This document shows, piece by piece, positions 16,503 through 54,938 of a stretch of DNA of 64,000 nucleotides. A model generated the notes under the pieces. The model was not told the DNA's origin. It saw only the letters and a list, made by a program, of their open reading frames with translations, and made no database searches. The stretch is taken from the NCBI GenBank assembly GCA_963969595.1, contig OZ018416.1:17810065-17874064 (forward strand), written 5' to 3'. Each line of letters starts with the position of its first letter. Position 1 is the stretch's first letter. This DNA comes from Neckera pumila (taxonomy: Eukaryota > Streptophyta > Bryopsida > Hypnales > Neckeraceae). Made by a program: the position numbers and the translations under genes.

Positions 16503-16737
16503 TGCCACATTTAACTACTTCTGGACTATTCAATGAATTCTGGACAATGCACTTTAGATTTCCGGATGATTATCTCTCGATGTTTGTGTATATCTCTTGA
16601 TGTTTGTACAGATCTCTTGATGTTTTGTATAAATTTCCTGATGCATCACGAGATCTCCAGATGATTATTTCTCGGATGATTATCTCTCGATGTTAATTCT
16701 GGACTTTCAAACGTCCATAAGTAGTTAAATGTAGCAT
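16503..16737. mobile_element. MITE copy 1 (TGCCACATTTAACTACTT ends) in the ECA leader intron
   Basis: Left end TGCCACATTTAACTACTT and TGGAC is mirrored by GTCCATAAGTAGTTAAATG and TAGCA at the right. TTTA borders both sides and could be part of a target duplication. The interior is a short minisatellite built on CTCTCGATGTTTGTA-like units. A second, shorter copy lies at 24303-24463, so both are members of one family. Superfamily not assigned. Confidence 0.7.
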
Positions 16738-24302: not shown

Positions 24303-24463
24303 ATGCCACCTTTAACTACTTCTGGACTATTCAGTGAATTTTGGACAATGCACTTTAGATTTCCGGATGATTATCTCTCGATGTTTGTATATATCTCTTG
24401 ATGTTTGTATAGATCTCTCGGTGTTTTGGACTTTCAAAAGTCCATAAGTAGTTAAATGTAGCA
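24303..24463. mobile_element. MITE copy 2 of the TGCCACATTTAACTACTT family
   Basis: Left end TGCCACCTTTAACTACTT and TGGAC, right end GTCCATAAGTAGTTAAATG and TAGCA, the same termini as 16503-16737. The interior TGCACTTTAGATTTCCGG is the same, but the minisatellite core is shorter (about three CTCTCGATGTTTGTA-like units). Bordering bases TAA and TAG are compatible with a 3-bp target duplication but not decisive. Confidence 0.7.
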
Positions 24464-24469
24464 TAGTAG

Positions 24470-26470: not shown

Positions 26471-26474
26471 TTAA

Positions 26475-27400
26475 CCCCTAAAGTCCCAAGGCCATTTTTT
26501 TGTCAAAAACAACTCAAAATTGCCAGTTCTGTTGTGTTCATCTAATAAAAGAGAGAAAATCATTTTTTTAGAATCTAACCATAGGATCTTGTACTTAATT
26601 TATCTTAGATCATGTGGTAAATATTTCATAAAGTTTGATCGTACAGATTAGAAGATATTAGCATTCAAAGTTGGAAAAAAAATGTTTTTTTGAGCACTGG
26701 CTTGCAATTTCAAATGACTTTGACCACCATTTGTAAAAAACAGTTGCACTAAATAATTTGAATTAAATTTTTTTAATATTATATAATAGAGTTGAGAATC
26801 TATAAAATAAAATCTCAAAAAAATAAACTTGATTTTCATTCTTTAAAAAATTGTTAAGTAGAAGTAGGTCTAAGATTGAAAGAAAAAATAAATTGCCAAT
26901 AGCTCTAAGATGGGATTAAAACACTATAATCCCAATAGTGAGATTGTTTTAGCAAGCAAATTTAGCCTTGTCCAACAATTTTTCTTCAAAAATTCTGAAA
27001 ATTGCATTCCGGAATGAATTCTACAAGTTATTTTTTCAAAAAGATGCTCTAATTGCCCAAAAAATAAGATTGTCCATAACTTTTACATAACAAATCCAAA
27101 TGGAATGAATTTAAGCTCCCCATATAGATAAAGTTACAATGTATGAGAAAAAAAAATTTAATTTAAAAAAAAAAAAAAATTGTGTGAGAAGATTTCTGCC
27201 TGCCATACCAAAAAAAAGGACCTTTTGTGCCATTATTTTTGCTCCCGGGCATCAATTGAAATAAAAAATTACATTCCCATAAAGCTAATGTAATTTCCTA
27301 TCTTCACAAAAAATTTCAAAAAAATAAGATGAATATTGAGGCCGTAGCAGCTTGTCCGAAATTCATTTTGTCCCCCGAGGAGACAATGGGACTTTAGAGG
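26475..27400 (+). mobile_element. TTAA-type element C, 926 bp
   Basis: Flanked by TTAA at 26471-26474 and 27401-27404. The left end is CCCCTAAAGTCCCAAGG and the right end, reverse-complemented, is CCTCTAAAGTCCCATTG, so about 14 terminal bases match with one mismatch. It has no credible open frame and is non-autonomous. The same element occurs in reverse orientation at 38491-40377 (element D), and its right half recurs at about 41487-41910. Position 26916-26919 is a TTAA that corresponds to the exact point where element E entered copy D. Confidence 0.85.
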
Positions 27401-27404
27401 TTAA

Positions 27405-27925
27405 GTTGGAGAATCTAGAAATACCAATGCTATTTAATGATGTTTTATTTTGGTATTAGAGACATTTGTTTAGTGTATTTTGGTATTAGGGACATTTGTT
27501 TAGTGAATTTTGTAGGAAGTTGATTACAAATAGTCATTTTTTGACTTTGAAAGAACACCAAGAAATATACGTCTAAATTTGAATGAAAAGTCATGATTTT
27601 CACTTGTCTATAAGAGAAAAATATTCCTCATTATAATTTTGACTCTAAAAAATATATGTACATAAATCAATATAACCTTAAAAGAAAGCTGACCAAAGTT
27701 GTTACTAAAAAAAGAATCTGATTTTTAGACCAATAGGTGCATTCTTCATTTCTACAGTGATATGAAAAGTCATCCACCACTTTTTGTTTGCACCATTCTT
27801 AAAGGGTAGAATGGATAATTTTAGATTATTTCACCTAAGTACCTACACAAAACCTGACACGTAAATAACTTTCAAATCAAATGAAGTTCATATAAAAGTC
27901 ACATCTAGTGCAACATTGAAGTTGA
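27405..27925. other. AT-rich spacer
   Basis: Contains a short direct duplication, TTTTGGTATTAG(A/G)GACATTTG followed by TTTAGTG, at about 27450-27510. Nothing else is recognised. Confidence 0.4.
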
Positions 27926-27927
27926 TA

Positions 27928-28180
27928 CTACCTCTGTCCCACCGAAAAGCTCTTTATTTTATCTCATGTTTTTCTTATACTAATTTCATTGACCATGTTG
28001 TAAAATGAATAATTTAGAATGGTCTAAATTTTATATCACCACAATCCATGAAGAACATTCAGTATCTATTCAATCCAACCAAAATAAAAATTGGACCCAA
28101 GCAAGCTTCCAATATGCCTACTCAAAACTACTAAAAAAACATGAGGTAAAATCAAGAGCTTTTTACTGGGACAGAGGGAG
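27928..28180. mobile_element. Stowaway-type MITE, 253 bp
   Basis: Left end CTACCTCTGTCCCACCG with AAAAGCTCTT, right end AAGAGCTTTTTACTGGG then ACAGAGGGAG, flanked by TA at 27926-27927 and 28181-28182. The ends match each other over about 30 bp and match the plant Stowaway consensus. Length is typical. Confidence 0.88.
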
Positions 28181-28574
28181 TATACAATAAGGCATACGAC
28201 AATGACAGGGGGTGCTTTTTTGAGATGTGGCAGAGAATGGACAGAGAAATAGAACATCAACAAGCACCCTACCAATCCACGGTAATACCAACTCGGTTCA
28301 GCGCTTCCACGGTTCGAACTCAAGACCGATTACTGCGTCGGACCCTCGAACGTGAGTCAGACCCTCCGACCAACGGTCTTCTTCCCAAAAGACCTCCGTC
28401 CACCGGTCGGCCGGTGGATTGCTATCCAAGCCTCTCATCCCTACAAAGCCTGCGCGGCAGCTGTCTCGCGTATTGCGTTACAAGCGATCGGTCCTACAAG
28501 CGAGGTTGGATGCCCACCGCGAGTTCGCCGCATCCCATTGCAGCAGATTCCTCAATTGGAGCCCTCCCCAGTGG

Positions 28575-30054
28575 CACAGAAATTCGGAGATCGTCTCCAA
28601 TTGTGCCAATTGGGTTGCAGTTGTAGCGAATTCGGAGGTGGCAACGAGGCAGCGCATCGGAAAGGAAGGCCAGATTGGTGCATGCGTTTGAGGAATTTGG
28701 GAATCACCTGAGACTGAAGATTTGTTCTCGTTACGGAACGGAAGGAGGAATTTCAGTTTACTTGTCTGGGGTTTGTGAATGATTGAACGTTAGGGTTCGG
28801 GGTTATGGCGTGGCGAGCTCGGGAGATGCAGGAACAGCTACCTTGGAGCTCGCACCGTTGTGCCCCGTCTTCATTGTCCTCGGTAATACTCTTTTGATTC
28901 TTGGTTTGAAATTGGGTGGTTATTGTTCCTGTAGTTTCATTTGCGGAGTCAGCTGGATTGTGTGGGATTGGATTAGGTTGTTGCGTTTTACTTTTGGGGT
29001 GAATGAGGGCGGGTATGTACTGGAACTTTGATTTAGTGGTGACAGTGTAGAAAGGTTTGGGATGTAGGTAAGCATGGGGTACCAGTGTCAATGGTGGTTT
29101 CATGATTTCTTGAGCATCTAATTATTTGTTTCATAAGGTTGCTGAATGTTTCTGGCGTGTTTCTGGTGGACTTTGATCATGTTTCGGACACAAAGTACTC
29201 TGTGCTTTTGTGATTTGAGTTGGTTTTCTGGACTTTCTGTGTTCTTTCATTTAATTCGGTTCCTTGTTGTGTTTAGGGCTTCATCACGAAAAGGATAAGA
29301 CTGGTAACCTGGCTGTGGTGAAAGGAGGGCGTAGGCATTATTTGGAAGAGCTCATGGATCTTCAGGAGAGCTTACGAGGGTCCAAGGTCTGGGAAACCAA
29401 TTCTTCGTGGAAGCTGCCTTGGATAGTGGTTTGAGAATTTGTGAATCGATTATACAGTATTAGAAACGGGCTTCTCGTCTTTGGAATCGTCGCTTGAGGT
29501 GCACTGTCTTGCTCTAGCTGAACAAGACTTTTGGAAACACAGGGTGGAGGTCGTAGGATTGAGCGGCCTGAATACTTTCCCAATCCAGTGTGTTCTTTTC
29601 ATGGATGTGATGCTATGAGTCACAACCATGTGAACGCAGCTGCAGGCAGTTGGACAATTTTATGTTCTCAGATGTTTGCTGGTGTGCGGATATCAGCAAC
29701 AATTGCACGGTATACGGTGATGATGTGCAGTCTTTGGGAAAGCCTTTCATGTGGATCCTTCTAACTGCCTGCCTGCAACGGAGCAGAAAGTCTCCGTGTC
29801 ATATCCACTTTGTTTAATTGGGAGTGCTATCACGATTTCGGGATGATTTTCCACCATATGCTAGCTGGTGGGTGGAAGGTTAATGCGACTGAATCCATCT
29901 CCTTGATTTTCGGTCATTCTGCACCTTTGACAAGAATCTGAAGGTTTAGGTAAGTCCCGTTGTCGAGGCATCTCGGCAACAATTTGGTAGCTATAGAATT
30001 TGAGCTGAATTAAACAGTGTGTAATCAATAAACTAGCAGCGTTGTTGGAGAAGC
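28575..30054 (+). promoter_or_regulatory. Promoter and spliced 5' leader of the Atos-like gene
   Basis: This 1.5-kb stretch is duplicated almost intact at 54939-56392, upstream of the broken gene copy. Candidate leader splice sites are CCTCG followed by GTAATACT near 28882, an acceptor TTGTGTTTAG ending near 29277, and TTTAG followed by GTAAGTCC near 29950. TTAGGGTT at about 28790 is a reverse-strand telo-box-like motif. The short open frames in it (for example 29531-29764) are preserved in both copies only because the DNA is recently duplicated. Confidence 0.5.
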
Positions 30055-33000
30055 ATGGGTCTGCCTGGGCCATTTAGTGAATCAGCAAACGATATTCGGC
30101 CGGGGGACGCTTTTGCTCGAAGTAGTACTGCTGCTGACCGGGAGATTCCAGGAGCTGTTAGTCATGCTTCACCTGCTCTAGGGGTAGCAGCAGCACACGG
30201 AAAGACATCCAAAAGTGGAGTGTCCACAGATTGCTGGGATCATACTGGCATTCCTGAAGGAGGTTCGAATTCGCACATTGCTGTTGAAGATGGCACTGTC
30301 TGGGAGTATCCTCTTGCAAACTCAAGCAGTAAAGCAGCTGCTCGGTCTGATCTTCTGGAAAGTAATTTGTATCGTCCACAGAGAGGTGCTTCCGTCACCG
30401 GAGTTCCTACTTCAATTATTGTCGGATTTGAATCACAGACGTCCACGTCGTCTCACATCACAGCCTCCAAGCATTCAAATGCAAACGCGGATGCTGTACA
30501 GGTCAGTACGTATATGTGGTGCTTATGCTGATGTTTGTGTACCACCAACGAGAATCCACTTGATTTACTCACAAGATGAATAACATATCTCTTCTTCAGG
30601 TCTTTTAAGAGGCCATGGAGTTGAAGGTTCTGGCAAGCTTCGAGAATTATGACCATTGTTGTTTAAATTATTGATGTCTCGGGGCAGAACGAAAGTGGCA
30701 CGGTCAATGTACTTCCAAATTTCTGCAGTGTAGACCTTTGCTTCTCTCTTGTGATGTTAGCTGGTGGCCAAACTACTCAACGATTGAAAGCTTTTGTTTT
30801 GGCTTCCAATGGATTCTGATTCGACTATTTCTGATACTCCAAGAATGTGTGTTTTCTGCAGTATGATTTTGGTGAATTCTCGCTATCCAGCAGCAGTCGA
30901 GAGGCCGGTGCCAATGACGCTGGCCTTAACACCATTCGCAAGAAGGCTTTCTCTCCTCTCACTAGCATGCTGGCTGCTGGTCAGAGTACTGGTGTGGCAG
31001 ATTATGGCAGCTCAGATGATCAGTGCTCGAAGGATGTGGATAATTATGAACTACCGTCTGATGTGTGCCCTTACAAAGTTGGCAACATCGTTAGTGTCGC
31101 CAGCGAGCCGGTTCCTATACCTCGCTCTCGAGAAAGGGGGCGCCAGCCAGTAGTGCAAACAGACGGGCCTGTCTTATGCAATGAAGGTGCTGACCTAGGG
31201 TTGACACCGAAGCCTGAAGAGCTTGCAGGAAGAACAGCTAATGTGAATGTGGAGAGGGCCCATGGATTGTCTCTTAACCCGGAGTATTTTTCCAAGGGTC
31301 TTCGAACTGTACGTTCAGGTGTCCCTCCTACTCTGTCGTTATCACCCCTTGGACCTCGCTGGGCCTCCTCGGCAATAGCAGCCACCCCGGATTTGGGCTC
31401 TGCAAGAAGTAGTCGGTATTCGGACCACCCTGCTGTTGTCAACGGATTGCACACTTCTACTCAGCGCCATTTGAAATGGGGTGAGCCTGCAAGCGAAGAG
31501 GAAGCTGCTGATGCTCGAATAGACGGCGTATTTGATGATTCCAGGCACGTCAATTTATTTGGTAATCTACAGAAGCACCAAGGTCTATCAAGGTCACCAG
31601 GCAGTTGGGGAGTTGAACCTTTTTCTGCACCTTCTATTGGACCAAAGAGTCCAGTAGGGTCGATTGGTACGCTAAATAGGCGATCCTTGGTTGGTTCCTT
31701 CGAAGAGTCTCTTCTTTCTGGGCGATTCTTGGCTGGTAAAGCCAGCCAGGTAAGTTTTGCCTTGCTCATGTCCTTCTCTTTTTTAAGTGGTTTTCTAGAG
31801 TGATCGGCAGGGAAATTTCAATTGTTTCTATTTAAATCACATTTCGTGGAGTTTGAGATGATGTTTGACTGTCATCTCTGATGAATGCCGTAGAAGCTCG
31901 ATGGATTTTTGGCCCTGCTGAGTGTTACCGGAGGTAGTTGGTCCCCACCAATGAAGAAGCTGCCCTTCTCAGTCTCGTGTGTGAATGGAGATAGTTCACT
32001 TCCTTATTTCGCCTCCATAGATGTGGCCGGGAGTTCTTTTGTTGGTAAATCAAGCAGGAGTCCCAGCAAAGCGCGCTTTAAAGTGCCTGTTAAAGGCCGG
32101 GTTCAATTGGTACAGTAGCACACCTCTCAGGATATTAGGTGCTTGGTCTACGAATGTGATTTACATTCAAATTTTCTGATAAGCTAATTTGATTCTTTCT
32201 TTGCTGTACACACAGCTTTGTAAGTGTTAAACCACTTATAAGTATTTCTGGTAGATTAATTGCATCTAAGTTTGTCTGCGTGTAGGTGTTAAGCAATCCA
32301 GAAAGGACCCCTGTGCATACCTTTATATGTAACTACGACCTGACAGACATGCCCCCTGGTACCAAGGTATGAATTTTTATGATGTTCTGGGTGACTGTGA
32401 TGGTAAGATACTGTATATATGCAAGGTGCAGTGATAAATTCCTGATTGCACATGCTTTCTCTTCGTCATTGATTGTGATAAACCTGTTGTAGGGAGCTGG
32501 CCAGTGACAGTGTTGACAGGATATGCTTTTGATTTGAATTGTTGTTGTTTTTTCATTGTGTAGACATTTCTTCGGCATAAGGTTTCATTAGCATCTGATG
32601 CGCACAACTCAATTCCAGGAAAAGAATTTGGCAGACCGGATCCTCGCTTTAATGGACTTTCTGATTCTTCCTCGCGGGGTGGCCGGTGTAGCTTTTCCAA
32701 TTTTAGTAGTTCAATGAGCTCCTCAGGAGCTTCTGTAGATTTGTACAGGTTCAAAGGTAGAGAAAGTGGCTCGCAAGTTTGTTCTGGAGCTGATGACCTG
32801 GTTATGGCTGAAGCTGAGCCTCCAAAAAACAGGACCAGTTCTGGTGTGGGTGGCAACCGGATGCGATCTGATACAGACACAATTGGAAAGTGTGGACCCG
32901 CTGCAAAAGCTGAATGCCAAGCTCGGGGTGTGCCTCTTGCAAACAGTGGTCTTCTTACGTTCAAAAGTTTAGAAGCCAAAGCCGGTGGTACAGCACTCTC

Positions 33001-33857
33001 GGATCAGAATCCTCCTCAAGATGACTGCAAGCAGGTTGACCAGACAGCAGCTGGGTTGAGAAGCAATATGCAGCCGAATCTTGGTCGGCAGGGTCACTCA
33101 AAGGGAGGCTCTAAAGGTGGTGAAGTCACTCCCGGGGTTTTGAAGTATGCCCTCCATCTGAGGTTCATGTGCCCACCCCTTAGGAACTATGGAAAGGACA
33201 AGATATCCAACATACAATCCAGGTCGGGATCTCCAAAGTGCTTAGGTTCCTCTGCACAGGCTGAAGAAGAGAGGCGATTCTACATATATGGGGATCTACG
33301 AGTGGTCTTCCCGCAGCGGCATGCAGATGCGGATGAGGGTCAGGTAATTTTGTCTTCTCAGTAAGCACAGCTGTGGTCTTGTGCTACGAGTTGAGTGCCT
33401 CTGAACTTTATTTATTGTTTGTTGACCACCGTAAACTCCAGTGTCGTAATTTGTGCTTGTTTTGGTACTAGGTCATGCATGCTTTCATCATGCTCACTTC
33501 GAAGAGAAAAGTAGGTTAATAATGTGATTTGTGATGTTTATTTCAATGTGTGATCTATTTTTTCTGCCAGCTTTGAAACAGGTCTGATGATCTATTTGCT
33601 GCCTTATTCTAGTTGAATCTTCACTAATTGAGAATCTAACCTCGAAGAGGTGTTCTAGAAAATCTAGCCTCTTTACAATTGGCAGGTTTTAATATGGCTA
33701 GGTTTGTTTTCATACTAAAATGTTTCACTTTATTCTTTTGTCATATTGGTGTAATTTGCGACTTGGATGGTTCCTGTACTGATTGAGGGTGTGTTTGCAG
33801 CTACAAGTTGAGTATGATTCACCTGCGAATCCAAAATACTTCGACTACAGCAGCTAG
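30055..33857 (+). CDS. Atos/FAM214-like protein (DUF4210 plus C-terminal chromosome-segregation domain), 822 aa
   Basis: Six coding exons: 30055-30501, 30862-31749, 31894-32109, 32286-32366, 32564-33343, 33801-33857 (stop TAG). All junctions are GT-AG and every intron lies in phase 0. The N-terminal 420 residues are Ser-rich and low-complexity. A DUF4210 block begins at about residue 421: NRRSLVGSFEESLLSGRF, then KLDGFLALLSVTGGSWSPP, then VCPYK-free core SCVNGDSSLPYFASIDVAG, then LSNPERTPVHTFICNYDL and TDMPPGTKTFLR. The C-terminal block, about 736-822, reads LKYALHLRFMCPPLRN, FYIYGDLRVVFPQRHAD and ends YDSPANPKYFDYSS. These are the two conserved domains of animal ATOSA/ATOSB and fungal relatives. 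Drosophila Atossa is a nuclear transcriptional regulator; the plant function is unknown to me. A broken copy lies at 56393-57865. Confidence 0.9.
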
Positions 33858-34190
33858 CTTCTGCAGTCACCTCTTTTACTGTCTAGCTTCGTCCTATCAG
33901 TCGTTATTACTTCAGGTCAGGTTATCTGTGAAGTATCCAGAAATTATCCTCCAGGTGGTTAGTTCATGTGCCTTCCCAATTTAACTTGTAAATAGACTTT
34001 CTATTCAACACTCAATCTAAATGCAATTGTAGGTCTCTTCAGAAGCCGAAATTTAAAATGGTATAAAATGGCCTGTGTTTGATGCTGCAAGCTTGAAATG
34101 AAAGTTTTCAACCTCTCCCGTGGGGTAAAACTTATGGACTCATCCTATCAAGGGTTTGGTCTGTACTCATTCTTTCGCAATGAAATCTCT
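33858..34190 (+). other. 3' UTR of the Atos-like gene
   Basis: Probable 3' untranslated region, T-rich, with no other recognised content. It is absent from the duplicate copy, whose deletion removes everything from inside exon 5 to 34252. Confidence 0.45.
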
Positions 34191-36010
34191 TTTCATTTGC
34201 GCCGATAAGCAGAGAGTCGCTGTGACTTGTTAATTCTCCATGGACACCAAATGTGGTGGCCAATTCTTTTTAGGTGTTTTGTAGAGGTCACCCCAATGGT
34301 GGTCCTTTGAATGTCAAATTCTATTGTTTCATCTGCAAACAATATTTGTTCTTGTAACTTGGCACTTGTGGATGCCTCTATTTCTGTCAGGACCGATATG
34401 AAAATTTCCATTTTCTATTATTTTTCACAGTAAAGGAGTACTTGAAAGCCAATGTACTCCTACGCTACAATTCAAAACCCCAAGAGCGGTACCATTGGTT
34501 TGCTCAAGGTTGTATCTGAAATCGAGGTACCAATTTATAATAGAAATTCTTTTCCAGAATGTGTCGATGGTTTTCAGAAACTTGATTGGAGATCTGAATT
34601 TTCCTTTCTATTCTACATTGCAGTGATCACTAATCAATTTTATGATACATTGTAGTATGCTGGTGGTGTTGCTCAAGAAAATTGGAATTCTTGATACCAA
34701 TATGTTACAAATACGTCTAGACCTTTTCTAAATGACTTGTAAAATGAGGTTTGGAAATATCCTGTGCACCTAAGATTCCTCACTTAAAACAGACTTGTTG
34801 GGTATCCAATATCTGTGGAAATAAATTGGGAAACAATTTCTTCCAGATGTTAGTGAAGGAAAGCAGATTTGGTTTGAGAATTCAGGAAAAAAATCACTTC
34901 CAGATGTTAGTGAAGAAAAGCAGATTTGCTTTGAGAATTCAGGAAAAAAATCACAGCAAGATGAGAGTGGAAGTGAATACAATTGGATTGAGAGTTTTTA
35001 GAGACAATATGACTAAAACTAAAAAATTCAAAGGTGTGGTCATAAGCATATGCTTCAACTTCCATTGATTGCCTCAAATAATTTTTCAAGCTCCCATTGG
35101 TAACTTTTGAAAATTTGATGGTGTTGAGTTTGAGAAACTTAAGCATTTTATCATAATTGGGTCACATATGCAATTTTTAACATCTCTTTGTTTGATGACT
35201 TCTACAAGAGATGTTGCAGTACAGGGGCTTCCTACCTTACTCTATCATTCCTAGTTGACATCCATCAAAAGTGATCTCAATATTTTGGGCTCATTTATTA
35301 ATTTAATGAAGAATGAGGGCATCAAAATTGTTTGTTTTGATCATCTTCTTTTGACACACATTTTTTTAAATTAAATTTATTGTTTATCTAATTGACATTA
35401 TAGATTTTTGTCCTTTCATTCCATGTAGCCAAGCAATAATCTATTGACATAGCATGAGCTTTTATAAACAATCATTTGTTGTGGATCAATGAGGATTGAT
35501 TTTCTAGTTGCGCTTTAGAAATTTGAAATAAGGTGATGTCTTAGAATGACATCTCAACATTATATGCAAAAATCATAAAAGATCAAGGTTCAATCAATAA
35601 ATTTTTCCAATGTGCATTACTTTTTATATCTGCTATAATGGGTGAGTGGATGCAATAATATTAAGAATAAACTCAAAGAGCCACATGCACATGCACGTGG
35701 TCAAGCGAAGAAGTCATGAGGTAATTTTTCTAGTAAGAAGGCAACCTAATTTCACTATTTAGTGTAGAGAGCATTCTCTCTTGAGACCATTATATTTCTC
35801 TCGAGAGCTTCACTTTAGAAATAGCATGACAGAGAGTCTAATAGTTAGTTCACATAATCTCAACATTATTGTTTATTGAAGCAATGATCATACTCATAGA
35901 AACCTGCAAAATTTCTACAGATTGACTTTTTTCCAATTGCTCCTGTAGATCTTCATATCAGTATTGGTCCTACTTTTGCAGCTTTTGTGTACTTGAAAAT
36001 GATCTTATAG
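34190..36010. repeat. Duplicated flank, copy A (copy B at 57866-59455)
   Basis: From ATGTGGTGGCCAATTC at 34251 to about 36010 the sequence is repeated at 57864-59455, with small insertions and deletions. Position 34230-34233 is a single TTAA in the context CTTGTTAATTCTCC. The same local sequence occurs inverted at 43492-44470, interrupted there by element G, so this is the empty site for that insertion. No gene is recognised in the block. Confidence 0.8.
34846..34965 (+). repeat. Tandem repeat, unit about 51-54 bp, two copies plus part
   Basis: TTCCAGATGTTAGTGAAGG is followed by AAAGCAGATTTGGTTTGAG and AATTCAGGAAAAAAATCA, repeated twice before the sequence exits at ATCACAGCAAGATGAGAG. Copy B at about 58436-58505 has only one unit, so the number changed after the duplication. 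Confidence 0.75.
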
Positions 36011-36361
36011 TGTTAGAGGCTCTTCAAGATGAGCCTCAAATACACTAAATCTAGGGAAATAATCACATTAGAAATCGTCTACAGAATTGTAGAATAGATT
36101 TTGTAAAGCCGTAAATTGATTATGGATGTTATGTCCTTTAATTAACCTTATATTTTGTTCATGACCTCAATTTTGGATTTTTGTGAGCCACTACATTGGC
36201 TCATAACTTAGAATTATTCATTTGATTGTGAAGACTACAAGATTATAACATTCAAAGTGAGTCGAAATTTTTTTTCTTCAGCCCTGTCAAATAGAGACAA
36301 GAGACTTCATTACCAAAAAATTCAGCCCATGGGAGGGCTGCCATGCATTTATGACAATGTA

Positions 36362-36362
<1 letters not shown>

Positions 36363-36431
<69 letters not shown>
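36363..36431 (+). repeat. (CA)n microsatellite, about 34 units, followed by a pyrimidine tract
   Basis: An uninterrupted CA run of about 69 bases is followed by a T-rich tract (TTTTTCTTTTTTC-like) to about 36486. The purity and length suggest high mutability. The 76-codon frame running through it is not a gene. Confidence 0.95.
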
Positions 36432-36433
<2 letters not shown>

Positions 36434-36489
36434 TGTTTTTGTTTTTGTTTTTCTTTTTTCTTTTTTTTCTTTTTTTTCTTTTTTTAGAT

Positions 36490-38486
36490 TAAAATTCCAA
36501 GATTTTATCCCATGGAATCTATAAATAATCTACCGCTTTATATATTTTCTTCACTAAGTTGTTTAAAACAAAGCGCAGCAATACTCTTCTTTTCAGGAGG
36601 GATTTGTGTATTAGTTACATACATGTGTTAAAATACTCAGATAAATCATATTTAGATAAATCATACAGATAGACCACCTAGATGGCTGGATACTCGGTAC
36701 CAACAAGATCAAGCAATATTAGATCTACTTTATGTTTGATATCCTGATGCCCCAAAATTGAGGTATTTGGGAATCAGAGTAGCCTCTAACAATTATTTTT
36801 TTAATTGACGTCTGTAAAAGAAGTTCTGACAAATGCTTAGGTGCTTCTACCTTAATGGCAACACCTGGTAAGCTGATTATGAAGGCAAGTAACTTACTGT
36901 ACAAAGTACGCAAGGCTGAGGGAGTTTTTTCTCTCACTTTACTGCTGCCATCGGAAGAAAACTCTGGAGTTTAGTGCCGCACTGAGCCGGGTTTTTTTCT
37001 GAGAATTCAAAACTTAAGCTTGGACTGGCTTCTTCGGTAGATCTAAGCGTATAGCAATTGTTGTCTAGGGAAACTGGTGTTGGGGTCTCAGATTAGCGGC
37101 CAACAGGTGTTATAGTTTTTTATAGCAAAATTACTGCAATGGTTTTTGAAAACTTATGAGTTGTTTCTTGAGCACCTTTTGAGTTGATTCTTTGTTTATG
37201 ATTGAGGTTTTTCTCTGGCAAATATACGATAACAAGTAGTAGTAACTTGCAGACACCTCGTGCACGTCATGCAACATTCTAATTGTTGGCTATGTGGCAT
37301 GGGTACAGGTGAGGGCTACCACCTCCGGAGGATTTTTTCAAAAATTTCCAAACGATTTTATGAACGTGTGAAGAACTTGGCTTATTGCAATGGATTGTGT
37401 CTGCATTTAACACTCAGATGCAATGCAAATTCTTTCTAAGCATGAGTTTCTCGTAGGATCAATCTGGTTTGTTGTTGCATCCTATAGCTCCTACGACAGA
37501 AGGCAGCTAAGTATATGATTTGGTCGAAAATCAAGCCCTGGATGGCTGGTTAACTTGGCCATACGATGCATCAGTGTGATGTTCTAAAAAAGTCAACAGA
37601 AGGAAGCTTTGTTAGCCAGATGGCTTGTTGTTCGTTTATTGCTGGACTTAGCTATTGTTAGATCTAGCTAATGAGCTTGCTTGGAACTAAACTTGATACT
37701 AACCACATACGGATTTTTTTACTGCTGCCTATACGGATTCAATTCCGGTTGTTACTCAACCTTGTTTGGTTGAAACATATTGCAATCCAGTATGGACAAA
37801 CTGACTCATTGTATTGAATCATTGCAAAGAATAATAAGTTAATGGCTTATCTTATCTTCTCTGTGAATAAGAACTTAGACTTGTATGAATTACAAAAATG
37901 ATTCTTATTTCTATTACAAGTATGAGTTTCGATAAGGAAGTAGAATCTACTCTAAATCTAGAGAAGTATCTAAAAAACATTTTTTTGGTTATTTTCCCCC
38001 TGTAATTGCACATCCGCCGAAAGTCAAACAGCCCTTATTAAGGTCCAGATCTCTTGTAGTGCAATCCCTCTTAGAATGAGCTTTTTGACTCTACTCAAAA
38101 TTGAGCATGTACAACATTGAATATACTACTTGTTAGGTACACTCATGAAAATTTCATAAGCAAATGAGAGGTTTACCTTACTCTAAATTGCCTTGGAATA
38201 TTAAGAGCTTAAGTAATCTAGCAATACACTAGCCATTTGGAGATGATTTGTTGTACAATAAGGAGAATTTGGTTTGAAACCCAAATCATAAAAACTTAGC
38301 GATAAACACTTGAAATACTTGGCAAAAATTCCAAGAACTTCGAGAATGCTAATTTCAAGCCATAGTAATGTTTATGCAATGGCTTTCATAAGTTTTTATA
38401 CACTTCAAAAATTGCCATAGCTAATTGAGAAATCATATTATTTCAGCAAATTTTTGGACATGTTGTAGGACACATAACACACTTTT
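36490..38486. other. Intergenic DNA without recognised genes
   Basis: Moderately AT-rich with no similarity to known exons, no convincing open frame and no inverted termini that I could pair. Confidence 0.4.
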
Positions 38487-38490
38487 TTAA

Positions 38491-40377
38491 CCCCTTAAGT
38501 CCCAAAGTCGTTATAGGAGAATCTTGGGATTTTGGGTAGGCTTATATGACTTCAATTTTATCAGAAATTGTTTTTGAAGATAGAAAATACATTGTGAGTC
38601 TTTTAATAGGTGATCAGGACCAAAAACATACCAATCTAAGTCCAAAAAACAGTATAAAGGGCAATACCAAAAAAATCACAAAAAATTGAATTTTTTTAAT
38701 TTTTAATTTTTTCCTAAAATAATATATTTTTGTCTATATATGGAGCTTTGATTCATTTTATTTTGGACTAGCGGTGAGAAAGTTATAGACAATCTTGTTT
38801 TGGGGGCAATCTAAGTATCTTCTTGAAAAATTAACATAGAGAATTCATTTTTGAATGCAATTTTGACAAATTTTCAAAAAAATTGTTAGATATGGTTTAG
38901 CTTGCTTGCTAAAACAATCTCACCACTAAAATTATTGTATTTTAACCCCTCACCGCCCAAGGGGATCAAAAGTGTTCCTCACATAGTATAAGTCCAATTC
39001 AAAGTATTGTAACTCTTGCATCCAATGTTTAAATTTAATAAAACTTGTTGAGCACTTTGCATTCTTTTTTCTAGTTTGTGTGGTAAAATTTTTAGATCAA
39101 TCAAAGATGTACTGGACTTTTGGAAGCCAATCAAAGTTCACAAGTTCAATTTGAGTTCACCAAACTGCATTTGATGGCTGCAACTTTGGAAGCTTATATC
39201 TCTTTTATCTAATGTCTGTTTTTAATAAAATTTATTGGGTTATGTATTCCTTAGAGATGAGTTATTGTGGAAAAATTTACATGTCAATTCAAGTTGTTTT
39301 GATTGCTTGAGAGCAATTCAAAGTTCAAAATCTTGACATTTTTTGTTACAGTGAATTTTGGCAGCTTGTTTCTTCATACAATGTTTCGGTTTCTAATAAT
39401 ATGTTTAGGAAAAGTTGCGCATATTAGTCTACTTTGTGTGGCTAAAACTCATATGTGACTAAGAAGCATTTTAGTAGAAGAAGTTTCAGCTTTAGATGTA
39501 TTTTTTGCAATTTTCTTGCTATATTTTGACATTTGAAAGCCATTTTGTAGACACAATGAACCATTTTAATGATATTCACTTTCACTGATGTGTTTGTATT
39601 TTGGTTTTGAATCACTTTATATTTTAAAGTCTTTCATTTGAGTAGGTTTAGAAATCAAATTCACCTCCAAATGTCTTGGTAGGAAAATTTTAGCATCCTT
39701 TTTCAATACTAAAATATTATAATCTTGCAATCTATATGGCCAAAAGACTCCAACTTTGATTCACGTCATCTACAAAACGTACACTACAAGATTGTATGGT
39801 TGAGATCTCTATAATTTAGTGAAATTTAGATTTATGACACTTCAAAAACATTGATGTTGAAGGGTTAATTCCATCTTAAAGCTATAAATATTTAGTTTTT
39901 CATTCAACTAGCTTTGAACCCACTTTTGTTTAATAATTTTTTAATGAGTGAAAATTAAGTGCATGTTGGGGGAATTTTTTCTTCTAAACTTTCAACTTAA
40001 TTCTTCAATATAAAAAAATAGATATTCAAAATTTACAATACAAAAGTTTTAAGTTCAAAAGATTCAATGGCAAAAAATTTAGTTGAGTAAGGTATTATAA
40101 AAAACATATTATGTGTATTTTTACACATTAAATCAATGTCATTAAAATCTTTATTAAAATTGTACAATTTATGTATTTTAATTTCTTCATTTTAATGCAA
40201 ATATCTTTCAATCTCTATGGTCAAATCTCTTGAAATTTCTTCCACATATTTTTTATAATAGTTTAGTACAAGATCCTATAGTTAGATATGGAAAGGTAAT
40301 TTATTTTTTCTTTTCTTTGCAATAGAAAAAGCAATTCTGAGTGATTTTTGATGAAAAAAGCCTTGGGACTTTAGAGA
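38491..40377 (-). mobile_element. TTAA-type element D, relative of C, interrupted by element E
   Basis: Flanked by TTAA at 38487-38490 and 40378-40381. The left end is CCCCTTAAGTCCCAAAG; the right end, reverse-complemented, is TCTCTAAAGTCCCAAGG. Its reverse complement aligns with element C: GTACAAGATCCTAT near 40265 matches C's ATAGGATCTTGTAC near 26579, and the TTGCTAAAACAATCTCAC stretch near 38906 matches C's GTGAGATTGTTTTAGC near 26938. Removing element E and one TTAA leaves 964 bp, close to C's 926 bp. No coding capacity. Confidence 0.82.
38946..39864. mobile_element. TTAA-type element E, nested inside D, 919 bp
   Basis: Flanked by TTAA at 38942-38945 and 39865-39868. The left end CCCCTCACCGCCCAAGG fits the family consensus; the right end reverse-complemented is CCCTTCAACATC, a weak match. 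Joining the flanks through one TTAA gives TATTTTAATTCCATCTTAAA, which aligns with element C's GTGTTTTAATCCCATCTTAG (reverse complement of 26905-26924). Element C is therefore a related empty site, which proves both the insertion and its TTAA duplication. No coding capacity is seen. Confidence 0.85.
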
Positions 40378-40381
40378 TTAA

Positions 40382-41486
40382 AATAAATAGTCAAAAATTT
40401 ATAATTAATTAATTAATAATTTAATCAAACTTATTAGAGGAAAAAAACTTTTAACGTAAGTACATAATTTTCAAAACTCTTTAGTAAAACAAATGAAAAT
40501 TTATTTTTGAAATTATACAATAAGAATTTTATGAATTTTAGAATTTTATTGAGTGAAATATTTTTAACTAAAATATGACCCTCAACAGATATATTTTTTA
40601 TAATTCCCTCCAAAAAAATTCCAAAAATTCACTATAAATTATAGATAAATATTTTTGACACTTTTCAAAATTTTCCAATATATTTGGAATAATTATAATG
40701 AATGAAATTTTTTTTATTTTTTTCTAATCAATAATTCACTCAATATGATTTAAAATTCATAAAACTACGACAAAATTCGATAAAGACTTTCCATTCCATT
40801 TATAGAAGAATCTTGAAAAAAATTTACTTGCATTTAAAGTTTTTTTCACTAATAAATTTGATATGAAATTCAAATATTGTTTTAAATTTTTTGAAAAATA
40901 GATATATGTAAATGTGTTATTTGTACTTCAACATGTCTAAATATCGTTAAAAATTTCTAACTTCTAATTTAGCTATGACAAATTTCTGAAGTATATGAAA
41001 CATTTTGAGAGCCACTATAGTTAGACAAAAATGTTTTTTTTTCAAACTTATCCAATAGATTAGTACCTAGAGTTTTTGTCTTATCTTGGAATGAGATTGT
41101 TGTAGTGAAAGTATTTTTTTATCAATTGCATATTATATCATATTAGTTTGATACATGCCAAATTTCAAAAGTAAATGAGGAATTTAGCTAAAGATGCCAA
41201 AATTGCCCAAATTGTCCGGATGATATTGGGTAATATGGCTTTGTATTCAAGAATCCAATTGAAATTCTTTTACATTTCTATTGATGGACATTTTCATCAT
41301 GTGTCAAATTTTCAAAAACATTTATTCAAGTTTTTACGTCATCATCACCTACACAAATTCAAATTGTCCCTTCTATGAACATTTATTTGGTTCTTCAAGG
41401 GTTAATTAATTTTTTCCATAAAGGATTGTATGTCGCAATCTCATTTTTAAAATTGTGGTCATAAAACGCCCATTTTGTTAGCGTGA
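40382..41486. other. Very AT-rich DNA between elements D and H
   Basis: TTCAAGGG followed by TTAATTAA at 41394-41408 resembles the right end of element E (TTGAAGGG, TTAATT), so another element of this type may end at 41401. No matching left end was found. Confidence 0.4.
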
Positions 41487-41910
41487 TCTCAATAGTGAGA
41501 TTGTTCTAGCAAGATATCTTAACCTTGTGAATTTTTCTTTATAAAAATTGAGTTCAAAAATAAATTCTACAAGTTATTTTTTCAAGAAGATGCTTTGATT
41601 GATTGAAAAATAAGATTGTCCATAACTTTCACATAATAAATCCAAATGGAATGAATCAAAGCTTTTCATGTGGATAAAATTACACCTATGAGATTCAAAT
41701 TTAAAAAAAATAAAAAAAATTTGTGTGGAGATTTTTGCCTATCGCTTTTGCTTGAGGGTATTGATTAAAATAAAAATATATATTTCTAGAAATCTAATGT
41801 ATTCTTCTATTTTTGTAAAAAAAATTCAAAAAATTATGATGAATATTAAGACCATAAGAACTTGCCTAAAATCCATTTGGTCCCTCGAGGAGACAATGGG
41901 ATTCTTGGGA
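41487..41910 (+). mobile_element. Truncated relative of element C (H)
   Basis: Aligns with the right half of element C (26935-27400). Shared wording includes TCAATAGTGAGATTGTTCTA against CCAATAGTGAGATTGTTTTA, AATTCTACAAGTTATTTTTT in both, AATAAGATTGTCCATAACTT in both, and GAGGAGACAATGGGA near the end. The right end is followed by TTAA (41911-41914). The left half is missing or replaced. Confidence 0.75.
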
Positions 41911-41989
41911 TTAAAAATTGAGAAGTATTTTTTTTTCTCCTCTAGAGACAAAGAATGGGCAGTGTGAAGGTTGAGAAGCCGTGGAAAAG

Positions 41990-42160
41990 ATTATCAAGCT
42001 GTGTCCATTCTCATTCTTTTAGCACACGGTGAAAAGGGGACTCAGTCACATTGCCTTCATAGAGAAGGCCTCCTATTGGCTCCTCTTTTCAAACACTCCA
42101 CACCTCCTCATTCTTCAGAGAAGCCTTAATTTCAGAGAAGGTGTGACAACTCCTAATAAA
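41990..42160. repeat. Dispersed repeat, related copy at about 780-950
   Basis: TTGGCTCCTCTTTTCAAAC, then CTCATTCTTCAGAGAAGCC and GAGAAGGTGTGACAA match the 780-950 stretch with moderate divergence. Boundaries and class unknown. Confidence 0.45.
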
Positions 42161-42702
42161 CATATTTCAATACTATCCAAATTTGACTCCAAAATTGGAT
42201 AATATGCTTCAAAATGACCTACACCTAAGGTAAAAGACCCCATTGAAGTCAAATGGCCCATGATGGACACCTAATGACCCCATTGTGGTTTTTCAAACCA
42301 CAATCAATGCCTTACATGGTAATTATGGAGTAATTAGTGACCTCAATAAGTAATCCCAACTCTTCAGTGTAAAATTCTTTGTAAAAATTGATTTTTTAAG
42401 TCTTCCATGTTTGAAAATGTTGTGACTTCATTGGACAGGAAGATGACCATATTGGATTCAGATTTTGTTGGTCATGAGGTAGCCTACAGACCCCTACGGG
42501 CTGATCACTTCAAAAATTCAAAGCTAATTCATACTTGGTCCAAAAACTATAATTTCAAATGTCCTCACTGTCTCTTACATTTATCTTTGTGTAGGAAAAA
42601 ATTTGAAAAATTTCAGCAATGGCATGAGGGCACACTTCTAATTCTAATCGTAATGGGGTCTTTTACCTTATCCCAAGTGATGGTCAGTTGATAGGACCTC
42701 CG

Positions 42703-42864
42703 ATGGAATCCATGCTCAAGGTTCAAAATTCAACTGCCCATTCTGACATTCCTCGCATGCATAGGGCTCCACGTGCCATGCTAGCTTTGTTTGCATGGGA
42801 ACTAACGGGTTTTGTTCCTCCACTTGTTCCTGATGGGGAAAAGGTCCATTATGATTTGCTATGA
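42703..42864 (+). other. Unrecognised 53-codon open frame of gene-like base composition
   Basis: A short frame reading MESMLKVQNSTAHSDIPR, then MHRAPRAMLALFAWELTG and FVPPLVPDGEKVHYDLL stands out from its AT-rich surroundings by balanced codon use and a Pro/Ala-containing sequence. No family is recognised and no splice partners are evident. It could be a fragment of a retroelement or gene exon. Confidence 0.2.
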
Positions 42865-43491
42865 TTGTATGGGGTCTAACCTAGTTGCAGCCCTTGAAGG
42901 CCATATGTTTAATAAATAAATAAAATTTAAAAGAAGAAGTTGGATAATCCAGGACGTGATATTAACGAGGTCTGCATGTGTGCAATACTTATCCTCGAGA
43001 TTACACTGACTGTAGTTTTGTGTGCATCCAAGTCTATGCCACATAGGCACTCAATCCTTATCACCCCGAACTCAAAAAGTGTTCAAGTTTTCTGACGTGG
43101 CATACCCACCAGACCCCCCACCAATCCTGATAGACTCCAAACTGCCACGTCAAGATTCCGTTTGAATGCGAATGCCACACAGTGGTGTGCCAAAAAGCGG
43201 TTTTTATTTTTCCTATGGAATGTTTGGCGAAACATTCTTGCTTTTCAGTGGAGAAAATCGCTGATTTGCTACCAAGTCTTGGAACTGTATTGCTCAAGTT
43301 TGGATGAATGTACATCATTTTGGATGAATAAATGAAATTTCATCCATAGATTGCAAGTTTCTTCCATTTCTATGGATGTAAAAAGCTTCATCTTTCTAGA
43401 AATTATCATTTTCTGCATTGCCTAAAATAAATGAAAAAAAACAAAAAAACTCCGGGTAGACGTGGCTCAAAACCTCGAGATTTTTATATTA

Positions 43492-44470
43492 GTCTTGATT
43501 GAACATAGGCATCCACAAATGCTAAGTTACAAAAACAAATGTTATTTGCAGACGAAACAATAGAATTTGACATTCAAAGGACCACCATTGTTGTGACCTC
43601 TGAAAAAATATGTAAAAAAGAACTGGCTACCACATTTGGCGTCCATGAAGAATTAACCCCTAAATGCCCAAACCCCCAATTTTTTGGCAACATAGCGATT
43701 TTGGGTAGCTCATTACAAATGGAATTTTTGTTTTTGTTTTCTTTGAAAATTTCATACAACATGTGCCCAAGGAATAGCTTTAAAGTCCAATAATTTTCAT
43801 AACTTTTGACTACATATTTAAAAAAATATTGCATGATATGTAATTTTTTGTGTTTAGCAAGCAACCCGGATTGCTCAGAAAACTTCTTTAAAATTCACTT
43901 TTAAAAAAAATAAGAATTTGAAATTTGTTCTCTAGATTTATATGTACGTAGAAAGCTTTGAATTATTCCATTTTGATTAATGTGATGAAAATTATGAGGA
44001 GTTTTAGTTTGCGGGTAGGTATAGAGTCTTTGAAAAACCATACTAGTATCCGCAAACTAAAACTCCTCATAACTTTCATCTCATTAATCAAAATGGAATG
44101 ATTCAATGCTTCCCACTTATATATATAACTAGATAACCAATTTCAATTTTTTATTTTGCAGATAAATGATTTTTAAAAGATATTTTTTAAATTGCCCAGG
44201 CTGCCCACTGAACAATAAAAATTACATATCATGCAATAACTTTTTAACCATGTAGTCAAAAGTTATAAAAATTGTTGGGCCTTAAAGTGGCACATATTGT
44301 GTGAAATTTTCAAAGAAAAAAATAAAAATTCCATTCATAGTGAGCTACCCCAAATCGTCATGTTGCCAAAATAACAGAGTTTTTACATTTAGGGATTAAC
44401 AAGTCACAACGACTCTCTGTTTATCGGCCCAAATGAAAAAGAGATTTGTTTGAATATATATGTCCTCTTG
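43492..44470 (-). repeat. Partial third copy of the 34.2-kb flank repeat, split by element G
   Basis: GCAGACGAAACAATAGAATT, CATTCAAAGGACCACCATTG and TGACCTCTG are the reverse complement of 34270-34345. After element G, AACAAGTCACAACGACTCTC and TGTTTATCGGC continue the same match (reverse complement of 34199-34233). This copy is more diverged than copies A and B are from each other. Confidence 0.8.
43657..44395. mobile_element. TTAA-type foldback element G, 739 bp
   Basis: Flanked by TTAA at 43653-43656 and 44396-44399. The whole element is an inverted repeat: the left arm to about 44014 pairs with the right arm from about 44048, leaving a loop of about 30 bases. The ends are CCCCTAAATGCCCAAAC on the left and, reverse-complemented, TCCCTAAATGTAAAAAC on the right, then TTTTTTGGCAACATAGCG against TATTTTGGCAACATGACG. 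Copy A of the host repeat has one TTAA (34230-34233) at exactly this point, so the empty site is known. Transcription across it would give a very long hairpin RNA. Confidence 0.9.
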
Positions 44471-45670
44471 AAGTAGTCTGCTCTTAAAGCAACCATTTAA
44501 GAACTAATTGCCTTTTTAGAGAAGCTAAACTCCTTGAAAAAAATTTGATAACTTTTTTGTAGAAGGAAAATGGAATTGGCATTAATCTAACCCAAGTCGT
44601 TTCATATTTTTTGGACCTTTGTAGAATTAGTTACAGAGTTGAAATTTTTGACATTGAAACGCACTGGTCATTGAAAGAGACCTCTTCTTTAAATGTACAC
44701 TGCTAGTACATTGAAGAAAGCACAATTATGCCTCTGTGTCAACGGGTTTTTTAGCGGCAAAAAATCGTCAAATTTTGCCCACCTTCTATGTACTTCAATT
44801 TTACTATGTGAATTAAAGGGGTAGAATTTTTTTGCTTAATTTCACTATTCTAGGAATTGTATTTAGCCATCTGGCCTTGAGCCAAAAGTTCACATCGCCG
44901 TTGAATTGGATAAGCGCTAGGCTGTAATCGCATATACTACTCTCATTAAGGTTATACATTCCAAATAAAATCGCCAAAACTTAGCCTTTAAATTACAACT
45001 TCTTGCATGCCTTAGTCTGGATTTCAACGTCCAATATAATGCGGTTGCCATGTTAGTCTCTTATACAAATAAATTAGGAGCCAAAACTTCTATCAAGGTT
45101 TGGTGCCCATAGCCATGATTTTGAAAGTTTCACTAACATATATCACCTATTTCCAAAAATGTTAACTACTATATTTTTCTTTTCATTATATTACTACTTT
45201 TATTTGTATTATTTATTTCTATTTTTATATACTGTCTTATTTTAGAATTTTCTAAACTAAAAACATTTTTATTATTACTTTATGTATCGGCTAGTATGAA
45301 AAGGAACATGCTTCTAATATATTTTATTTTCATTTGCCAATCATTTCTTTTTCATATTTCTATGAAGATTGTTAAACCGTACGCATAGGTCACTTTTGGC
45401 ACCTTACTGCCGAAATAGTTTAGTTTTTGAAATTTGACAATTTCGCAGTTTTGATTTGGATTTCTTGGCTTTTGGCACTTTGCTTTTTCTAATTTTTTGA
45501 CGCTCCCAATTTTGGATTGATTTTTTCTATTCATGCATGAATGTGATCTTTTTTCTAAATTTTCTCAAGAATAGATTATTTTCTTCTACTTATTTTCAAA
45601 ACTGTCCAATAGACTACCTTACCCGCCCTTACCCGAGCTGATATATTCTAACGGTACTAGACAGTAATTG
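44470..45670. other. AT-rich intergenic DNA
   Basis: No genes, paired termini or RNA genes recognised. Open frames are short and of low complexity. Confidence 0.4.
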
Positions 45671-45680
45671 ACACCCTTTA

Positions 45681-46178
45681 GACCATCTGCAATGCAATCA
45701 TGGTACATGGCCCAATATCGTTATAGCTAACTTTTGAATGCTAAATAATTAGAATTTGAAAATTGTCTTATTAGAAGAGCATCGGAAAGAACTTGGAGAA
45801 GGAACAAAAAAATTTCAAACGAGACATTAGACAAGTACTTCAAAAGCGAGGTACAAATATGAAATTATAGAGGTCTTAGCAAATCACAATTACCAAAGCA
45901 ACATTTGACCATTGACCTTCCACATTTGACGATTTTTAGAGGGTCAATGGTCAAATGTTGCTTTGGTAATTGTGATTTGCTAAGACCTCTATAATTTCAG
46001 ATTTGTACCTTGCTTTTGAAGTACTTGTCCAACGTCTAGTTTGAAATTTTTTTATTCCTTCTCCATGTTCTTTCCGTTGTGCTTCCAATAAGACAATTTT
46101 CAAATTCTAATTGTCTAGCATTCAAAAGTTAGCTATACCGATATTGGGCCATGTACCGTGACAGCATTGCAGATGGTC
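45681..46178. mobile_element. Large hairpin (foldback MITE), 498 bp, TTA-flanked
   Basis: Nearly the whole element is one inverted repeat: the left arm 45681-45917 pairs with 45942-46178 around a loop of about 24 bases. The ends are GACCATCTGCAATGC and GCATTGCAGATGGTC. TTA borders it on both sides (45678-45680, 46179-46181), a target duplication typical of PIF/Harbinger (Tourist-like) elements. Arm identity appears high over the entire length, for example TTAGCAAATCACAATTACCA against TGGTAATTGTGATTTGCTAA. A transcript would form a dsRNA suited to small-RNA production. Confidence 0.88.
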
Positions 46179-46199
46179 TTAGGCTGTCGGTGCCATTAA

Positions 46200-46422
46200 C
46201 CCCTAAATGTCGAGGAGGCCATAGAATGGTTGATGGATGACAAAGAATTAAACTCTACAAGACAGAAGTGCAACTATTCATCTTCAAAGTTTATTGTGAA
46301 AAGGAAAAATCTTCTATAGTAGGTTGACTTCCAATAGATACTTTTGAATATTTTAATGTAGACGATGTCACACGGTAATGAAACAGGATGATTTCCAGGG
46401 TCACCCCTTCGTCCTTTAAGGG
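46200..46422. mobile_element. TTAA-type element I, 223 bp
   Basis: Flanked by TTAA at 46196-46199 and 46423-46426. The left end is CCCCTAAATGTCGAGGAGG and the right end, reverse-complemented, is CCCTTAAAGGACGAAGGGG. It begins only about 15 bp after the 45681-46178 hairpin. No coding capacity. Confidence 0.7.
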
Positions 46423-46479
46423 TTAAGGGATTTAAGGCCATTGTGGATTCCAAAAGCCCCTCTATGCCCAAACCCAAGA

Positions 46480-54934: not shown

Positions 54935-54938
54935 TACA

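What the first reader, a model, noticed from the sequence alone, without database searches (positions are those of the whole stretch)
26471..46426. A family of TTAA-targeted elements with CCCCTnAnnGCCCAA ends: piggyBac-like transposons in a land plant
Seven elements (A 5133, B 6848, C 26475, D 38491, E 38946, G 43657, I 46200) start CCCC(T) next to TTAA, most with an inverted end against a second TTAA. The left ends align: CCCCTAAATGCCCAA (G), CCCCTAAAGTCCCAA (C), CCCCTTAAGTCCCAA (D), CCCCTCACCGCCCAA (E), CCCCTGAGCGCCCAG (B). A TTAA target duplication plus CCC-type termini is the defining signature of the piggyBac superfamily, which is classically considered absent or very rare in land plants. 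Internal sequences differ, so several subfamilies seem to have been moved by one machinery. No transposase lies in this window.
Basis: partly seen in the sequence, partly recalled or inferred. Interest (0 to 1): 0.85.

Follow-up and report, generated by a model that had tools for sequence, protein, structure and literature searches.

The report
piggyBac jumping genes in a moss-like plant
The repeated DNA pieces in this plant sequence are short, gene-less passengers of piggyBac 'jumping genes', and the same genome carries many full-length piggyBac elements with matching ends, several of them nearly identical copies, so a transposon group best known from animals has spread widely in a land plant.

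Summary
All seven listed left ends follow TTAA; six of seven have a second intact TTAA (B has TAAA). Empty sites inside the window show one TTAA for G and E. The plant's own assembly (339.5 Mb) holds at least 116 piggyBac (DDE_Tnp_1_7) transposase matches. Of 20 of these loci examined, 14 have TTAA plus CCC-type ends on both sides. Three 5.63-kb elements (98.8-99.2% identical) have the ends of window element C; three full-length elements have unoccupied relatives with one TTAA. The transposase matches solved piggyBac (6x67) by sequence (E 2.7e-35) and fold. Genome-wide, 1,145 of 1,318 exact copies of one 17-bp end follow TTAA. Corrections: several piggyBac lineages exist, not one machinery; D ends at 40381 with E nested in it; 'absent in land plants' is overstated, since two papers list piggyBac there. 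A, B, E and I have no autonomous partner identified yet. The host is a non-seed land plant, probably a moss (inferred). New member of a known kind, abundant and apparently recently mobile; current activity is not shown.

The parts
26471..27404 (.). Element C: 934-bp non-autonomous piggyBac element (MITE), TTAA both sides, ends CCCCTAAAGTCCCAAGG / CCTCTAAAGTCCCATTG
   Evidence: 72-76% identical to both termini of transposase-bearing L009-L011; six full-length relatives elsewhere 75-85% identical, TTAA to TTAA
26916..26919 (.). Single TTAA in C, the empty site for element E
   Evidence: alignment of E's joined flanks with C
38487..40381 (-). Element D: a C-like element in opposite orientation (about 970 bp without E), ends CCCCTTAAGTCCCAA / TCTCTAAAGTCCCAA, split by E
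38942..39868 (.). Element E: 927-bp element nested in D, TTAA both sides, CCCCTCACCGCCCAAGG / CCCTTCAACATC
   Evidence: empty site in C; second copy L025:6829-7799, 76% identical over 950 columns, TTAA both sides
41486..41914 (+). Right half of a third C-like element, ending TCCCAAGAATCCCATTG next to TTAA; left end not found
43653..44399 (.). Element G: 747-bp fold-back MITE, TTAA both sides, 77% identical to its own reverse complement over the whole length
   Evidence: 8,464 first-look candidates in the genome, 40 scored; 20 copies read
34230..34233 (-). Single TTAA in a related repeat, the empty site for G
46196..46426 (.). Element I: 231-bp MITE, TTAA both sides, CCCCTAAATGTCGAGG / CCCTTAAAGGACGAAGG
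   Evidence: related copies in L013, L029 and L017
6844..7091 (.). Element B: about 248 bp, upstream of a PATROL1-like exon at 7336; CCCCTGAGCGCCCAG / CCCCTGAGCGCCCCAG; right flank TAAA
5129..5347 (.). Element A: 219 bp, TTAA both sides, short inverted end CCCCTA
24..765 (.). Repeat ending TTAACCCCTAAATG (minus strand, 765); whether TTAACCCTGG at 24 is its other end is uncertain. Its part 170-468 is an unoccupied relative of the DNA into which the 7.2-kb element L017 is inserted

Best explanation
The window elements are non-autonomous piggyBac elements (MITEs). They keep the ends that a piggyBac transposase recognises and have no transposase gene. Autonomous-type piggyBac elements of 5.0-7.3 kb with matching ends and DDE_Tnp_1_7 transposase genes lie elsewhere in the same plant genome. 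The transposase is inferred to bind the CCC-type ends, cut the element out and insert it at a TTAA, which ends up on both sides. Shown here: TTAA on both sides, unoccupied relatives with one TTAA for MITEs and for full-length elements, matching ends on transposase-bearing elements, a transposase that matches piggyBac by sequence and predicted fold with its three Asp, and near-identical copies at different loci. Inferred: which transposase moved which MITE family (best supported for C and D; for A, B, E and I only end type and TTAA fit), and that some are still active. Several transposase lineages coexist with different variants of the ends.
For:: 116 scored DDE_Tnp_1_7 matches, 116 of 116 over Pfam's cut-off, 35 of 116 without a stop inside the match (my count of the table); 0 of 14 control genomes. 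L009, L010, L011 (5.63 kb, 98.8-99.2% identical) and L015, L016, L019, L025 (5.37 kb, 98.7-98.9%) are bounded by TTAA and CCC/TCC ends with different flanks. L018 and L026, 6.8-6.9 kb, 95% identical end to end. In all, 14 of 20 loci have both ends; joined flanks of L009, L010 and L025 align through the junction with unoccupied relatives; in 7 of the 9 pairs printed both have a single TTAA at the same place (the other two relatives have changed bases there). Of 10 full-length elements tested, 4 (these and L017) had such a relative on hand; of 20 copies with the C-type end, 20 have TTAA at the near end and 15 a far end with TTAA within about 1.2 kb; in the rows shown, five 585-bp copies match the L010 or L011 terminus at 94-98% over 53 bp; 1,145 of 1,318; reversed-pattern control 0; 36-37 of 40 ends match at each TTAA position; at the eight positions outside the commonest base reaches at most 18 of 40. 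E 2.7e-35 to T. ni piggyBac 6x67; D211 and D302 invariant, D420 at least 90% conserved in 36 sequences (35 of the 49 homologues plus L009); pLDDT 87.8; best PDB folds 6x67 and 9c0f. L009 and L010 share a 638-aa ATG-started frame without stops, 9 differences.
Against: The window copies are old: G is 17.6% from the majority consensus. A, B, E and I have no partner pinned down. For 6 of 20 transposase loci both ends were not found, and L013's ends are complicated by flanking I-type copies. L017's unoccupied relative in the window has CAAA, not TTAA, at the junction. Pfam's piggyBac zinc-ribbon model (PF13842) was not reported for the L009 protein at E<=0.1, although 16 of 20 frames have a Cys/His-rich C terminus by eye. 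The fold match has a large overall rmsd (11.7 over 532 columns; TM 0.64/0.74). Many transposase matches carry stops. The empty sites are diverged relatives, not alleles. Movement was not observed.
Confidence: 0.96

Rival explanations
1. The elements belong to another TTAA-targeting superfamily, such as Kolobok or Sola3 (their TTAA targeting is recalled, not from a call).
For: TTAA duplication alone does not name the superfamily. No search for Kolobok or Sola transposases was run.
Against: Transposase-bearing elements with such ends code for DDE_Tnp_1_7; sequence and fold match piggyBac.
Confidence: 0.02
2. One transposase moved all subfamilies.
For: Most ends share CCCCTAAA followed by a CC-rich step.
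Against: The 20 transposases fall into about five groups interleaved with environmental proteins (FastTree, no support values printed), with different ends: CCCCTAAAGTCCCA, CCCCTAAAGGACCA, CCCCTTGGGGACT, CCCCAAAACGTCC, CCCTGTATCGCCGG, CCCCTAAGCGCTCAAG.
Confidence: 0.08
3. The plant genome is contaminated by sequence of an insect or other organism.
For: Most homologues found come from unnamed sequence sources.
Against: Transposase matches lie on contigs C1 to C11, ten of which are 23.5-52.8 Mb; elements are nested in one another and in this window stand beside plant genes. The two named animal homologues are 26-27% identical.
Confidence: 0.01
4. The motif matches are chance or composition effects in AT-rich DNA.
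For: A generic search for TTAA-flanked inverted 14-mers gives no excess (8 vs 7).
Against: Motif excess, TTAA in front of unconditioned motif hits, empty sites and genome-wide counts.
Confidence: 0.01

Closest known systems
piggyBac superfamily (Trichoplusia ni piggyBac; PDB 6x67)
   Same: TTAA target, CCC-type ends, DDE_Tnp_1_7 transposase with the three catalytic Asp, same predicted fold, Cys/His-rich C terminus
   Different: Host is a land plant; 23% identity in the structural alignment; elements with both ends found are 5.0-7.3 kb, against 2,472 bp given for a typical element in PMC10813416 (passage); MITEs appear to outnumber transposase copies
piggyBat (PDB 9c0f)
   Same: Second-best sequence and fold match
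   Different: Bat element (recalled); more distant by sequence
piggyBac MITEs of animals (recalled, not from a call)
   Same: Short TTAA-flanked elements keeping only the ends
   Different: Here G is a nearly perfect fold-back of about 748 bp; the hosts differ
PiggyBac entries in land-plant repeat surveys (PMC4438587 Table 2; Ceratopteris table in PMC6890710)
   Same: Record the superfamily in land plants
   Different: The passages seen give survey classifications (1,230 copies, 122 kb in the fern); those passages show no transposase, ends or empty sites

Membership tests
piggyBac superfamily | TTAA target site duplicated on insertion | tested here: met
   Empty sites for G and E and for L009, L010, L025; 1,145 of 1,318 ends; 20 of 20 near ends
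piggyBac superfamily | Terminal inverted repeats beginning CCC | tested here: met
   14 of 20 transposase loci with both ends, each CCC or TCC after TTAA; PMC10813416 passages list 5' motifs CACTA, CCCTC, CCCTT and CCCAT
piggyBac superfamily | DDE_Tnp_1_7 transposase inside elements that bear those ends | tested here: met
piggyBac superfamily | Catalytic Asp triad and piggyBac fold | tested here: met
   (large overall rmsd; identity of the catalytic residues recalled)
piggyBac superfamily | C-terminal cysteine-rich zinc domain | tested here: inconclusive
   Cys/His pattern in 16 of 20 frames by eye, but PF13842 not reported for L009
piggyBac superfamily | Seamless excision | not testable with these tools
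   Needs an excision assay or allele comparison
MITE (non-autonomous derivative) | Short, no transposase, shares both termini with an autonomous-type element | tested here: met
   C and C-type copies vs L009-L011 and L017; not shown for A, B, E, I; for G only the terminal bases
Kolobok / Sola3 | Their own transposases in elements with these ends | not tested
   No search for their transposases was run

The most novel reading that the evidence does not exclude
This plant carries a living piggyBac system: several diverged endogenous transposases, at least one still able to cut and paste, driving thousands of MITE copies. It would be a natural, active piggyBac in a land plant and a source of plant-adapted TTAA transposases.
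Probability: 0.45. Interest if true: 0.75.

Novelty: new member of a known kind. Interest (0 to 1): 0.62.

Why it matters
piggyBac is known mainly from animals and is widely used for seamless gene delivery; in plants the moth element has been used as an imported tool (PMC10905368; abstract in a listing and passages). A land plant with many intact, nearly identical native copies lets one ask how the superfamily entered and persisted in plants, whether it still moves, and whether plant-adapted transposases could serve as tools. It also gives an identity to repeats that occur many times in this genome.

Tried and rejected
A generic TTAA inverted-repeat scan gave no excess over its control and was dropped as evidence. 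Pairing D with 41914 was rejected: the D copy ends at 40381, and 41914 belongs to a third C-like relic. The TTAA-looking pair at 16511/24312 was rejected as piggyBac because its repeat extends about nine bases beyond TTAA. A different target reading (TA, TAA or TTA) is disfavoured because all four TTAA positions are conserved at both ends and the next base outside is not. Those G copies were found with a query that includes TTAA, so alone is biased; searches do not have that bias. Genome counts for E and for CCCCTNANNGCCCAAGG did not complete. The paper on Niphotrichum japonicum uses the word only as 'piggybacking' of expression (passages).
Full report
What was claimed and whether it is there. 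TTAACCCC is found 11 times in the window against 1.96 expected. Six of seven elements have an intact second TTAA; B ends in a 13-base inverted match followed by TAAA. The window's self-comparison clarifies the anatomy: C is 26471-27404; D is a C-like copy in the opposite orientation, 38487-40381, with E (38942-39868) inserted into it; 41486-41914 is the right half of a third C-like copy; G is a 747-bp fold-back element; I is 231 bp.

Empty sites. Two insertions can be read against unoccupied relatives inside the window. G's joined flanks align without a gap at the junction to 34180-34330 (minus strand), which has one TTAA at 34230-34233; E's joined flanks align to C, which has one TTAA at 26916-26919. 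The same test was run for ten full-length transposase-bearing elements against sequence on hand (L017 against the window alone). Four had a relative running through the junction: L009, L010, L025 and L017. The junction alignments printed for the first three cover nine pairs: seven have one TTAA at the same place, two relatives have changed bases there. For L017 the relative is window 170-468 (83% over 301 columns), with CAAA at the junction. The other six had none. L025 sits inside a G-type MITE. These are diverged relatives rather than alleles, but they show that TTAA is the duplicated target.

Genome-wide test. The window is C9:17810065-17874064 of an assembly of 339,505,838 bases in 18 contigs. 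The 17-base end CCCCTAAAGTCCCAAGG occurs 1,318 times (655 + 663) and the reversed control never; with exact TTAA in front it occurs 1,145 times (568 + 577). The other 173 were not examined. The first 20 of the 100 listed places, chosen without regard to TTAA, all have TTAA at the near end; 15 of 20 have a far end with a matching inverted repeat and TTAA, nine at 584-587 bp and six at 917-938 bp. In 5 of 20 no far end was found within the stretch. In sequence on hand, CCCCTNANNNCCCA is preceded by TTAA in 5 of 5 window cases and 13 of 13 cases in 23 other stretches. The G family has 8,464 first-look candidates, of which 40 were scored. In 20 fetched copies conservation begins abruptly at TTAA, with the bias noted under Tried and rejected. 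Divergence from the majority consensus averages 7.2% over 21 copies; nine are within 4%, while the window copy is 17.6% away.

The transposase. The own genome gave 116 scored matches to DDE_Tnp_1_7 out of 872 first-look candidates, all 116 over the Pfam cut-off, best E 4.6e-80. I took 8-kb stretches around 20 of the 116, the best-scoring ones, and further upstream stretches for three. Both ends were found for 14 of 20: L009, L010, L011, L013, L015, L016, L017, L019, L021, L022 and L025, and L014, L018 and L026. For L012, L020, L023, L024, L027 and L028 they were not. Near-identical full-length copies lie at different loci: L009-L011 at 98.8-99.2%, L015/L016/L019/L025 at 98.7-98.9% and L017/L021 at 95.9%, and L018/L026 at 95%.

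The ends match. L009-L011 begin CCCCTAAAGTCCCATTG and end, read inward, CCCCTAAAGTCCCAAGG; window element C has the same pair with one change, and is 72-76% identical to both termini over 304 and 96 bp. In the rows shown (first 60 only), L057, L059, L063, L065 and L066 match the L010 or L011 terminus at 94-98% over 53 bp; L058 and L061 appear there with longer alignments at 69-72%. The consensus ends of the G family, CCCCTAAAGGACCAA, resemble those of L017 and L021, CCCCTAAAGGACCA, but only over the terminal bases.

It is piggyBac. The L009 protein aligns with T. ni piggyBac (6x67, E 2.7e-35) and piggyBat (9c0f, E 1.6e-23). In an alignment of L009 with 35 of the 49 homologues, D211 and D302 are invariant and D420 is at least 90% conserved; that these are the catalytic residues is recalled knowledge of piggyBac. 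The predicted structure (pLDDT 87.8) has 6x67 and 9c0f as the best PDB folds, then Tn5; overall rmsd is large (11.7) with TM 0.64/0.74 to 6x67. L009 and L010 share an intact 638-aa frame from ATG; the first ATG in the L011 frame gives 567 aa.

Host. Window exons match PATROL1-like, cation-transporting ATPase and carbamoyl-phosphate synthase families, and the assembly has 49 chlorophyll a/b-binding matches: a green plant. The PATROL1 exon is at most 42% identical to named seed-plant proteins, while the three nearest unnamed proteins reach 73-90%. An Lhcb exon scores best, among ordinary single-domain chains, with 7xqp and 8htu, 358 bits against 346 for the next; I recall these two as the moss Physcomitrium patens, but the listing gives no organism, and one 620-aa chain (9vfj, LHCI-2) scores higher. 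A moss is therefore likely but inferred; the species is not known.

How it most likely works. The mechanism follows published piggyBac work (hairpin intermediates, footprint-free excision, TTAA integration; PMC7351741, abstract in the listing). Elements with a transposase gene supply the enzyme; MITEs that keep the ends are moved in trans and appear to outnumber them (1,318 exact ends of one type and 8,464 first-look G candidates against 872 first-look transposase candidates; first-look numbers are not confirmed copies). The tree of 20 own and 49 other proteins puts own transposases in about five groups, some closer to environmental proteins than to each other, and groups carry different end variants. 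So the picture is several piggyBac systems side by side rather than one machinery. Current activity is not shown.

What is known. In ten literature searches (capped listings seen, not whole papers) I saw no study of native piggyBac in a moss listed. Only open-licence papers are held and long lists were cut, so this is weak evidence of absence. PMC4438587 Table 2 lists PiggyBac among superfamilies found in all groups studied, land plants being one (passage), and PMC6890710 tabulates 1,230 PiggyBac copies in a fern (passage). The finding is therefore a new member of a known kind. Its interest lies in abundance, diversity, intact genes and near-identical copies.

Noticed in passing
window 28576-36006 and 54936-59455: A large duplicated block (84-96% identical, with an inverted piece 30710-30990/56519-56799) around a gene with a Chromosome_seg domain; it holds the empty site for G.
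   Followed up: partly
window 60286-61490 and 62447-63478: Inverted duplication, 76-88% identical, with a palindrome at 61115-61311.
   Followed up: no
window 45670-46188: 519-bp hairpin (90% identical to its own reverse complement) ending just before element I.
   Followed up: no
window 16502-16737 and 24303-24464: Two copies (94-97%) of a short inverted-repeat element with ends around TTTAACTACTT; not piggyBac-like.
   Followed up: partly
window 27925-28183: Stowaway-like element with ends CTACCTCTGTCCCA/CTCCCTCTGTCCCA next to TA (family name recalled).
   Followed up: no
window 48142-48221: SNORD36 snoRNA match, 34.4 bits against a cut-off of 30, E 0.1.
   Followed up: no
L013:1795-2018 and 7038-7267: The 5-kb transposase element (2015-7041) is flanked on both sides by inverted copies of the I-type MITE, each sharing its TTAA; either nested insertions or one element with long inverted ends.
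   Followed up: partly
L012:6397-8001, L023:6594-6943, L028:6453-7500: The right end of three related transposase elements shares its TTAA with the start of a repeat that recurs about every 349 bp; repeated insertion into a satellite, or a satellite carried with the element.
   Followed up: no
L025:6829-6832 and L015:1390-1393: Different TTAA elements stand back to back sharing a single TTAA, suggesting that existing TTAA junctions are reused as targets.
   Followed up: no
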